From assembly GCA_001604035.1 (NCBI GenBank), contig LVAK01000044.1, forward strand, positions 1 through 44,330: a stretch of 44,330 nt of DNA, given 5' to 3'. Below, piece after piece: positions 37,497 through 39,791 of this stretch. The position numbers and the translations under genes were made by a program. Positions within the stretch are counted from its first letter, which is position 1, and every line of letters starts with the position of its first letter. A model generated the notes under the pieces. It was not told the origin of the DNA and did not search any database. It was given only the letters and a program-made list of their open reading frames with translations. This DNA comes from Clostridiales bacterium Firm_05. Its GTDB lineage: Bacteria; Bacillota; Clostridia; Oscillospirales; Ruminococcaceae.

Positions 37497-38162
37497 TTAA
37501 TCAACGGAAAAACCAATAAATTCCCATTCGATTATTTTAGCGAACCAGACCAGTGCTCCGGTATCAAAAAAGCTTATAGGCCGGAAGGCCTCACCGCTTT
37601 CTATTACTGAGAAGCCAGCATCAGTAAGCTCACTTATACAATGAGAAAGATCATGTCCCTCAAAACGCTTTTCTGCACCCGGAAGAAGTTTTTCAACAAG
37701 CTCACGATCGTTATCTTCTCCCACCTGCTGTGTTATAAAAAAACCGCCGGGTTTCAATATCCGGTAAAGCTCCTCGGCTTCATATGCACCATGTCTGTTT
37801 ATAACCACATCAAAAAAGCTGTCAGGAAAAGGCATTGTTTCATAGTCTGTTACCTTGTGAAAACCTATTCCGAGTTTGCCTAATACCTTTCTGCAAAGCT
37901 CAACATTAGGCGGATAGCCTTCTGTTGCAAAGGTATTTTCAAAAGGATGGCCAAGACTTAACAGTAATTCGCCTCCGCCAGTGTCGATGTCAAGAAGTTT
38001 ATCAGTGCTGCGCCTGTATCTGTTTATGACAGCCTTATAATCCCATGGCAGATCATCTTCCTCGGAATAGAATCTGCCCTTGATATGACTGAAATCCCAG
38101 CCCTTTATCATAGCGTTCTGCTCTTCGTTTTTCCAGTTTTTTCTTAATTCTTCTATGTTCAT
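37497..38162 (-). CDS. Class I SAM-dependent methyltransferase with attenuator-like leader
   Basis: LLDIDTGGGELLLSLG motif I, RILKPGGFFITQQVG. Confidence 0.88.
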   Translation of the reverse strand: MNIEELRKNWKNEEQNAMIKGWDFSHIKGRFYSEEDDLPWDYKAVINRYRRSTDKLLDIDTGGGELLLSLGHPFENTFATEGYPPNVELCRKVLGKLGIGFHKVTDYETMPFPDSFFDVVINRHGAYEAEELYRILKPGGFFITQQVGEDNDRELVEKLLPGAEKRFEGHDLSHCISELTDAGFSVIESGEAFRPISFFDTGALVWFAKIIEWEFIGFSVD

Positions 38163-38194
38163 AATAACTACTCCTTTATATTTTCATTCAAAAA

Positions 38195-38261
38195 GGTGCA
38201 GTCAACTGATAACCTCAATTACTCGGTGCGATCTGTTATCAGATTTCAAAACTGCACCGAG
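38195..38261 (-). promoter_or_regulatory. Mutually exclusive hairpins / candidate conditional terminator in the methyltransferase leader
   Basis: GGTGCAGT(38251-38258):ACTGCACC(38195-38202)+TTTTT and CTGATAAC(38235-38242):GTTATCAG(38206-38213), versus CTCGGTGC(38254-38261):GCACCGAG(38222-38229). Confidence 0.8.
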
Positions 38262-38278
38262 AAGTTATCTCGAATCAT
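38246..38278 (-). CDS. 10-aa leader peptide MIRDNFSVQF
   Basis: ATG ATT CGA GAT AAC TTC TCG GTG CAG TTT TGA, preceded by GGAGG (38288-38292) at 9-nt spacing; overlaps the 5' arm of the hairpins. Confidence 0.75.
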   Translation of the reverse strand: MIRDNFSVQF

Positions 38279-38312
38279 TATTATTGTCCTCCGTAATCAT
38301 CAATGTAAGGAT

Positions 38313-38341
38313 ATTATATATCACCAATTCATAAAAGTCAA
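38313..38341 (-). promoter_or_regulatory. Near-consensus promoter (TTGACT-17-TATAAT) of the leader/methyltransferase unit
   Basis: -35 at 38336-38341, -10 at 38313-38318, 17-bp spacer. Confidence 0.8.
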
Positions 38342-38354
38342 TACATAAAAGAAA

Positions 38355-38380
38355 AAACCACCTGTCAAAGCAGGTGGTTT
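38355..38380 (-). terminator. Intrinsic terminator of the M18 aminopeptidase gene
   Basis: AAACCACCTG-tcaaag-CAGGTGGTTT with minus-strand U-run. Confidence 0.88.
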
Positions 38381-38387
38381 GTATAGA

Positions 38388-39791
38388 TCAGTCTTCGCAG
38401 AAAGCAATGAATGCCTTATATGCCATATAAGTATCGATCTTAGAAACTATCTCATACGGTGCGTGCATTGAAAGCACAGGCACGCCAAGGTCTATGGTGT
38501 CAACGTTGAGGTTTGCAATATAAGCTGCAACTGTTCCGCCGCCGCCTTCATCCACCTTACCAAGCTCACCTGTCTGCCAGATGACCTTCTTCTCATCCAT
38601 AAGGCGTCTTACACGGCCTGTAAATTCAGCAGAGGCATCTGATGTGCCGGACTTTCCTCTTGCACCTGTATACTTTGTTACAACAACTCCCCTGTTGATA
38701 TATGCACAGTTATTGCGCTCATTCACCTCAGGGAATGTCGGATCAAACGCAGCGTTTACATCAGCCGAAAGACACTCAGATGCAGAAAGAACAGTTCTTC
38801 CGTCTGAACCAAGCTCCTCCGCTATATCAGCGATAAAGTATTCAAGATATGCTGAGCAAAGGCCTGTATTTCCATCGCTGCCAGTCTCCTCCTTATCAGT
38901 GAGGACTGTTACAACTGTATGAACAGGATCCTTGCAGTCAACTGTAGCTCTTAAAGCTGTATAAGCGCACACCTTGTCGTCGTGACCGTAAGCACCGATC
39001 ATGCTTCTGTCAAAGCCGATATCCTTTGCCTTGAATGCAGGCACAGCTTCAAGCTCGCTGGATATGAAATCTGCTTCGGTGATACCATACTTCTCATAAA
39101 GGATATTCATTATATTGAGTTTTACAGCTCCACTCTCCTCATCGTCCTTAAAAGGTCTTGAGCCGATGATTATATTGAGCTGCTCGCCTGTTATACCCTT
39201 TGCAAGAGGCTTCTGCATCTGTGCAGTTGCAAGATGCGGAAGAAGGTCTGTTACACAAAATACCGGATCATTTTCGTCCTCACCGATAGTAACCTTTACT
39301 CTTGTTCCGTCAGCCTTTACTACAACACCGTGAAGAGCAAGCGGGATAGTGGTCCACTGATACTTCTTTATGCCGCCGTAATAATGAGTCTTGAAGAGAG
39401 CTATCTCGTTATCCTCGTACAGCGGATTCTGCTTGAGATCAAGTCTTGGAGAATCAATATGAGCTGCACAAAGTCTTACGCCCTCCTCAATAGGGGCTTT
39501 GCCGATAACGGCCATAAGTATAGCCTTATCTCTGTTGTTGCGGTAGATCTTATCTCCTGCTTTTAGCTTCATTCCTTTTTTATATTCAACAAATCCGTTT
39601 TTTTCAAGAAGGTCTATCGAATATATAACAGCCTCCCTTTCGATCTTAGAGCGATCCATAAAGTCCTTGTAGTCCTCACAGAACTTGTCGCAGTCTGCGA
39701 TATCCTCATCGGACATATTATAATATGCATTTTTCCGCTTTAACAGGAGCTTTTCTTTGAGTTCCTTTAATGCTTCTTTGTTTTCTTCCAT
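38388..39791 (-). CDS. M18-family aminopeptidase
   Basis: LCAAHIDSPRLDLKQNPLYED, GAYGHDDKVCAYTAL, DKEETGSDGNTG, SMHAPYEIVSKIDTYMAYKA. Confidence 0.93.
   Translation of the reverse strand: MEENKEALKELKEKLLLKRKNAYYNMSDEDIADCDKFCEDYKDFMDRSKIEREAVIYSIDLLEKNGFVEYKKGMKLKAGDKIYRNNRDKAILMAVIGKAPIEEGVRLCAAHIDSPRLDLKQNPLYEDNEIALFKTHYYGGIKKYQWTTIPLALHGVVVKADGTRVKVTIGEDENDPVFCVTDLLPHLATAQMQKPLAKGITGEQLNIIIGSRPFKDDEESGAVKLNIMNILYEKYGITEADFISSELEAVPAFKAKDIGFDRSMIGAYGHDDKVCAYTALRATVDCKDPVHTVVTVLTDKEETGSDGNTGLCSAYLEYFIADIAEELGSDGRTVLSASECLSADVNAAFDPTFPEVNERNNCAYINRGVVVTKYTGARGKSGTSDASAEFTGRVRRLMDEKKVIWQTGELGKVDEGGGGTVAAYIANLNVDTIDLGVPVLSMHAPYEIVSKIDTYMAYKAFIAFCED

What the first reader, a model, noticed from the sequence alone, without database searches (positions are those of the whole stretch)
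38195..38341. Leader-peptide-controlled attenuator upstream of a SAM methyltransferase
On the minus strand, in order: TTGACT-17-TATAAT promoter, GGAGG, a 10-codon ORF (MIRDNFSVQF*), then overlapping complementary segments. CTCGGTGC can pair with proximal GCACCGAG (around an inner ATCTG-ATAA-CAGAT hairpin). Alternatively the same GGTGC, as GGTGCAGT...CTGATAAC, pairs with distal GTTATCAG...ACTGCACC followed by TTTTT, a terminator shape. The leader ORF spans the shared 5' arm, so a translating or stalled ribosome would decide which fold forms. GATAAC also occurs within leader codons 4-5. This architecture matches the erm-type and Listeria lmo0919-type antibiotic-responsive attenuators. It suggests the methyltransferase is induced by a ribosome-targeting stress; inducer and substrate are unknown.
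Basis: partly seen in the sequence, partly recalled or inferred. Interest (0 to 1): 0.82.

Follow-up and report, generated by a model that had tools for sequence, protein, structure and literature searches.

The report
Ribosome-gated leader of putative resistance genes
A short RNA leader that encodes a tiny peptide, shared by many gut Clostridia and by Lactobacillaceae plasmids, probably keeps methyltransferase, drug-pump and other likely defence genes off until a ribosome stalls at one particular spot; it is a family of antibiotic-type gene switches not found in Rfam or in the papers searched.

Summary
Promoter, SD, leader ORF (MIRDNFSVQF*) and both competing pairings lie at the stated coordinates. 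Across 67 distinct homologues both exclusive folds are kept by compensatory changes: A:B 97.8% of cells paired, A:C plus inner helix P2 97.0%. The leader frame is conserved (74 of 83; 2 and 0 in the other frames). Rfam has no match.

The element is modular. It precedes the methyltransferase in 40 of 80 orthologous loci and on six of seven Bacilli plasmids examined. Elsewhere it precedes MFS transporters, ABC exporters and two kinds of radical SAM protein. This fits a translation-inhibitor response; the inducer is unknown.

A terminator is not supported in general: the T-run is not conserved. Inferred: OFF = SD sequestered; ON = A:C formed by a stalled ribosome. Simulated occlusion frees the SD only with leader codon CGA in the ribosome's A or P site (63 of 74 leaders). 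That codon is CGA in 80 of 89 leaders, never another Arg codon.

Verdict: new variant of leader-peptide translation attenuation. In the window genome the methyltransferase is truncated by a TAA.

The parts
38313..38341 (-). sigma-70 type promoter TTGACT-17-TATAAT
   Evidence: 11 of 12 consensus matches; lies just after the upstream gene's terminator
38288..38292 (-). Shine-Dalgarno GGAGG of the leader ORF
   Evidence: sequence
38246..38278 (-). leader ORF MIRDNFSVQF*
   Evidence: in-frame start with SD in 74 of 83 distinct homologues, 2 and 0 in the other frames
38270..38272 (-). CGA (Arg) codon 3, predicted stall codon
   Evidence: CGA in frame in 80 of 89 leaders although CGA is 6.4% of Arg codons in the methyltransferase genes; simulated stall here frees the downstream SD
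38259..38269 (-). segment L, GATAACTTCTC, can pair with the methyltransferase SD region (L:D)
   Evidence: part of the minimum-energy fold of the window; own-partner pairing exceeds shuffled partners, family-specific in rSAM and some MTase leaders only
38251..38261 (-). segment A, CTCGGTGCAGT (leader codons S-V-Q): CTCGGTGC pairs B, GGTGCAGT pairs C
   Evidence: covariation of both pairings; triple changes in A, B and C together
38235..38242 (-). P2 5' arm CTGATAAC
   Evidence: pairs 38206-38213; 95.6% of cells paired, 7 of 8 pairs with two-sided changes
38222..38229 (-). segment B, GCACCGAG, proximal partner of A
   Evidence: 97.8% of cells paired, 5 of 8 pairs with two-sided changes
38206..38213 (-). 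P2 3' arm GTTATCAG
38192..38202 (-). segment C, ACTGCACCTTT: partner of A and anti-Shine-Dalgarno of the downstream gene
   Evidence: A:C 98.5% of cells paired; C:D stronger than C with generic SDs and family-specific
38190..38194 (-).
   Evidence: not conserved
38163..38177 (-). segment D, AAAGGAGTAGTTATT: SD region of the methyltransferase, resembles A
   Evidence: complementary to C and to L
37497..38162 (-). class I SAM methyltransferase, 221 aa, cut short by TAA; the frame continues to 37404
   Evidence: Pfam Methyltransf_11 8.9e-9; orthologues are about 251 aa

Best explanation
The element is a leader-peptide translation attenuator. Shown by sequence comparison: a short translated ORF whose last conserved codons (A) can pair either with B or with C, and a segment C that can also pair with the Shine-Dalgarno region (D) of the downstream gene, D being a look-alike of A. 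Inferred: without stalling, the leader is translated and released and the RNA folds so that the SD is covered, by C (A:B + C:D) or in the window and its near relatives also by the leader itself (L:D outside A:C). When a ribosome stalls with the CGA codon in its A or P site it covers L and the first three bases of the A:B stem but leaves GGTGCAG free; A then takes C, C can no longer cover the SD, and the downstream gene is translated. A ribosome stalled further on covers A itself and leaves C to cover the SD. The likely inducer is an inhibitor of ribosomes acting in early elongation, because the regulated genes are a methyltransferase with an RlmA-like fold, MFS and ABC exporters and radical SAM proteins; inducer and methyltransferase substrate are unknown.
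For: Both exclusive folds covary in 67 distinct homologues, and the same A positions change together with both partners (A18 G to A with B and C both C to T in 13 of 14 sequences; A21 in 9 of 9). Leader frame conserved despite 1 to 5 codons between start and CGA. C:D pairs far better with its own family's SD than with other families' (ABC -13.5 against -6.5, MFS -13.4 against -6.9 kcal/mol; permutation p 2e-4; A:D control p 0.96) and than with generic SDs of the window. Occlusion simulation: SD opening energy 4.6 free, 2.2-2.5 with P site at codon -1 or 0, 6.0-6.6 at +2 to +6; minimum at -1 or 0 in 63 of 74 non-redundant leaders; shuffling leader or middle flattens the profile. CGA in 80 of 89 leaders. 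Upstream of five gene families and on mobilizable plasmids. CGA is decoded slowly in Salmonella (PMC4046918).
Against: No expression, toeprint or drug data. The simulation is thermodynamic, ignores co-transcriptional kinetics and pseudoknots, and its best codon shifts by one with the assumed footprint edge. L:D is not kept in ABC and MFS families. CGA is replaced in nine leaders (TGC, CCA, TTC, TTG, AGC, CAT, CAA, TAC). About half of the methyltransferase orthologues lack the element. Homologues are related, so counts are not independent events. In the window itself TTTTT after C leaves termination possible, and the methyltransferase is truncated, so the switch may be a relic in this one genome.
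Confidence: 0.7

Rival explanations
1. Transcription attenuator: A:C plus P2 followed by T is an intrinsic terminator, A:B is the antiterminator, and a ribosome on the leader decides between them.
For: Window has TTTTT after C; a few homologues have TTTT (L030, L063) or TTTTTTTT (L157). Known relatives such as tlrB and cplR combine termination with SD sequestration (PMC6851288, PMC10201436).
Against: T-run absent in most homologues, including the closest one and all ABC leaders; the terminator scan did not list it, though that scan only looks for loops of 3-8; the hairpin is interrupted with a long loop; the sequence after C is explained as anti-SD.
Confidence: 0.15
2. Codon-specific sensor: the CGA codon is read out because its decoding (tRNA-Arg with inosine, or charged Arg-tRNA) is what fails; the signal is tRNA or arginine stress and not a ribosome-bound drug.
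For: Only CGA among six Arg codons is used, though it is the rarest in the same genes, and it lies outside all helices; the simulation puts the useful stall at CGA; CGA is slowly read in Salmonella (PMC4046918).
Against: Nine leaders lack CGA yet keep the structural logic; the regulated genes look like drug defence and not arginine metabolism; no run of Arg codons as in amino-acid attenuators.
Confidence: 0.25
3. Plain RNA switch (riboswitch or protein-binding leader) in which the ORF is incidental.
For: Strong structural covariation without any experiment on translation.
Against: Frame kept with a start codon and SD at varying distance, 74 of 83 against 2 and 0.
Confidence: 0.07

Closest known systems
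Bacillus subtilis tlrB (yxjB) leader, MIIQFIRYR (PMC6851288)
   Same: Short leader peptide, stalled ribosome, SD-sequestering hairpin, downstream methyltransferase; RlmA is also among the nearest folds of this one
   Different: tlrB stalls at C-terminal RYR and carries a conserved intrinsic terminator; here the conserved end is xxNxSVQ, there is no conserved terminator, the leader arm chooses between two partners, and the stall is predicted several codons before the end
erm-type translation attenuators (ermC and others)
   Same: Four-segment logic with a stalled ribosome shifting pairing so that the methyltransferase SD is freed
   Different: In ermC (from general knowledge) occluding segment 1 lets 2 pair 3; here segment A itself must stay free to pair segment C, so only an upstream stall works. 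Peptide and RNA are unrelated and the methyltransferase is not Erm
Clostridial cplR and Listeria lmo0919/vgaL leaders (PMC10201436)
   Same: Very short uORF, anti-SD segment, early-elongation inhibitors as inducers, Clostridia
   Different: cplR has a 3-codon uORF MR[I/M], an intrinsic terminator and an ABC-F gene; here the uORF is 9-13 codons or more, there is no conserved terminator and the genes are other families
Escherichia coli toiL (PMC12121999)
   Same: uORF pairs with the downstream SD region and can answer several ribosome inhibitors
   Different: Any stall in toiL activates; here stalls beyond CGA are predicted to repress

Membership tests
erm-type attenuator | Downstream Erm (23S A2058) methyltransferase | tested here: not met
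   Pfam Methyltransf_11; no Erm A2058 dimethylase model matched; only sub-threshold NCBIfam hits to RlmA, ChrB and Erm(32) G745/G748-type enzymes
erm-type attenuator | Leader peptide with alternative stems and a sequestered SD | tested here: met
tlrB/RlmA-II leader | R/K-X-R/K at the leader C terminus | tested here: not met
   leaders end in SVQ, SVQF or SVQL, some run longer
tlrB/RlmA-II leader | Conserved intrinsic terminator | tested here: not met
   T-run not conserved
tlrB/RlmA-II leader | Methyltransferase acts on 23S G748 | not testable with these tools
   fold resembles RlmA(I) 1p91 (E 5e-13, rank 3) but also many small-molecule methyltransferases
lmo0919/cplR type ABC-F leader | 3-4 codon uORF before an ARE-ABCF gene | tested here: not met
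   uORF is 9 or more codons; no ABC-F gene found downstream
Any Rfam family | Score above the gathering threshold | tested here: not met
Ribosome-mediated translation attenuator (general kind) | Drug- or starvation-dependent stalling on the leader that raises downstream translation | not testable with these tools
   needs toeprint and reporter

The most novel reading that the evidence does not exclude
A modular, horizontally spread leader RNA in which the SD region mimics a leader-ORF segment, so that two look-alike sequences compete for one anti-SD, and which works as a position-specific gate: only a ribosome held at a nucleotide-conserved CGA codon switches the gene on, while ribosomes held further along tighten repression. 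The CGA codon itself may be the sensor of translation stress.
Probability: 0.3. Interest if true: 0.85.

Novelty: new variant of a known kind. Interest (0 to 1): 0.72.

Why it matters
One regulatory RNA family, absent from Rfam and from the papers searched, links a methyltransferase family, an MFS pump, an ABC exporter and two radical SAM families in gut Clostridia and on mobilizable Lactobacillaceae plasmids. If it answers a ribosome inhibitor, it marks these uncharacterised genes as inducible resistance candidates, and the covariance model gives a way to find more of them. The codon-specific gate is directly testable with a small reporter set.

Tried and rejected
Intrinsic terminator as the conserved output: rejected in general because the T-run is not kept; left open for the window alone. 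L:D as the only sequestering pairing (my first idea): kept for Ruminococcus MTase and rSAM leaders, rejected as general because ABC and MFS leaders do not show it. Stall at S-V-Q as inducer: rejected on the simulation (more sequestration). Inner CTG-CAG hairpin: not conserved. Hairpin CGAG-CTCG as the reason for CGA conservation: fails in leaders with CCCGG or CGCAATG. Rfam match: none. Phage or viral origin: no hit. Literature on this leader: none found in seven searches, including searches for the peptide strings; the library lacks most subscription papers. The genes behind L132 and L134 looked like a recoding case but are decayed methyltransferases.

Full report
What was checked. The single-strand fold is more stable than all 200 shuffles (z -2.96). 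The window is contig 99 of a Ruminococcus-like draft genome (kinship, genus of the closest named relatives), and the element occurs once in it. An upstream terminator-like hairpin at 38380-38355 separates it from the preceding gene.

Homologues. Orthologues of the methyltransferase were fetched from relatives, from GTDB species genomes and from a class-wide sample. Their upstream regions show the same layout. In 36 trimmed sequences, A:C plus P2 is 95.0% paired with 9 of 15 pairs changed on both sides, and the A:B helix is 99% paired with 4 of 8; slid controls fall to 19-50% and 26-43%. A covariance model then found the element in 44 of 125 genomes of the genus, 15 of 180 of a second family, 6 of 32 of a third, and thinly across class and phylum. 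On 67 aligned distinct matches A:B is 97.8% paired (5 of 8 pairs two-sided) and A:C plus P2 97.0% (13 of 15). That alignment was fitted to A:C plus P2, not to A:B. The same base of A changes together with both partners: A/B/C goes from G/C/C to A/T/T in 13 sequences at column 18 and 9 at column 21, in MTase, ABC, MFS and plasmid leaders. That is what two exclusive stems sharing an arm should show.

Leader ORF. In 83 distinct leaders the frame that reads R-x-N-x-S-V-Q has a start codon with SD and stays open in 74; the other frames in 2 and 0, although the start lies 1 to 5 codons before the CGA. The missing cases include a one-base register shift of the automatic match: L128 reads MEIKYDNCSVQL* and L133 MKLKFGKCSVQF (read). 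The codon before x-N is CGA in 80 of 89 leaders and never another Arg codon, although CGA makes up 6.4% of Arg codons in the methyltransferase genes (counts there are by string position, and L128 and L133 were corrected by hand). CGA is not part of any helix found. CGA is read poorly in Salmonella (PMC4046918).

Downstream genes. Besides the methyltransferase the element precedes a 250-aa radical SAM protein (12 leaders), another radical SAM protein (L135), MFS transporters (L136, L137, L151, L157, L158) and ABC exporters (L167, L168, L170, L171, L172). It also precedes the methyltransferase on five Lactiplantibacillus and Levilactobacillus plasmids typed as mobilizable or conjugative plus the conjugative plasmid of L128, six of the seven Bacilli plasmids examined (29.8-35.3 bits). 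Forty of 80 species-genome methyltransferase loci carry it. Use before unrelated pumps and enzymes argues for a shared inducer rather than autoregulation by the methyltransferase.

Third pairing. C (AACTGCACCTTT) is complementary to the downstream SD region D (AAAGGAGYAGTT) with one A-A mismatch; D resembles A. In ABC leaders all three segments differ together (A AGTACAGTT, C AACTGTACT, D AGTACAGTT), as in MFS leaders. Duplex energies of C with its own D are -13.5 (ABC) and -13.4 (MFS), against -6.5 and -6.9 with D of other families; permutation p 2e-4, and the control pairing A:D gives p 0.96. Against SD contexts of other window genes C is weaker (-11.7 own against -6.5 for the methyltransferase group). 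The T-run after C is therefore mostly anti-SD. The leader can also pair with D (L:D) in the window, its relatives and most rSAM leaders.

Mechanism. I masked a ribosome footprint at successive leader codons and computed the cost of opening the downstream SD. Free RNA costs 4.6 kcal/mol, P site at -1 or 0 relative to CGA 2.2-2.5, codons +2 to +6 6.0-6.6; 63 of 74 non-redundant leaders have the minimum at -1 or 0, and shuffling leader or middle removes the dip. With assumed edges of +11 or +17 the best codon moves by one. For the window: 4.5 free, 1.6 at P site CGA. A stall there covers L and CTC, which blocks L:D and A:B, but leaves GGTGCAG for C. Shown: conservation, covariation, frame, gene contexts. 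Inferred: the OFF and ON assignment, the stall site, the inducer.

The enzyme. AlphaFold2 of the full-length orthologue family is confident (pLDDT 96); the nearest folds include RlmA(I) 1p91 (E 5e-13, rank 3) but also many small-molecule methyltransferases, and 1p91 is the best sequence hit in the PDB (2e-4). A ribosomal RNA target is plausible, not shown. The window copy stops at TAA after residue 221; the frame goes on with the family's conserved C-terminus.

Literature. tlrB (PMC6851288), cplR (PMC10201436) and toiL (PMC12121999) are the nearest described systems. No paper on this leader was found in the held library, which lacks most subscription journals.

Noticed in passing
37497-37499 (minus strand), frame continuing to 37404: The methyltransferase is cut by an in-frame TAA where orthologues have K or E; the remaining 31 conserved codons are intact. 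Orthologues L004/L034 (TAA) and L006 (TAG) also have single in-frame stops, and L132 and L134 are decayed: the gene seems often lost.
   Followed up: partly
38355-38380: Strong terminator-like hairpin on the minus strand just after the upstream gene (38388-39791), which looks like an M18-type aminopeptidase (from general knowledge).
   Followed up: no
L144, L146-L149, L163, L186-L195: A 250-aa radical SAM protein (CxxxCxxC, no curated family above cut-off) sits behind the same leader in many Ruminococcus genomes; its role is unknown.
   Followed up: partly
L128, L196-L200: Plasmids of Lactiplantibacillus and Levilactobacillus carry the leader and methyltransferase near repA and mobQ; in L128 (NZ_CP023493.1) the methyltransferase is annotated as two overlapping pieces.
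   Followed up: partly
L030, L005, L039, L075: In several Ruminococcus relatives the element or gene lies directly behind a gene ending in NIRDVIMFPRTVGSIR, which looks like asparaginyl-tRNA synthetase, with no terminator between.
   Followed up: no
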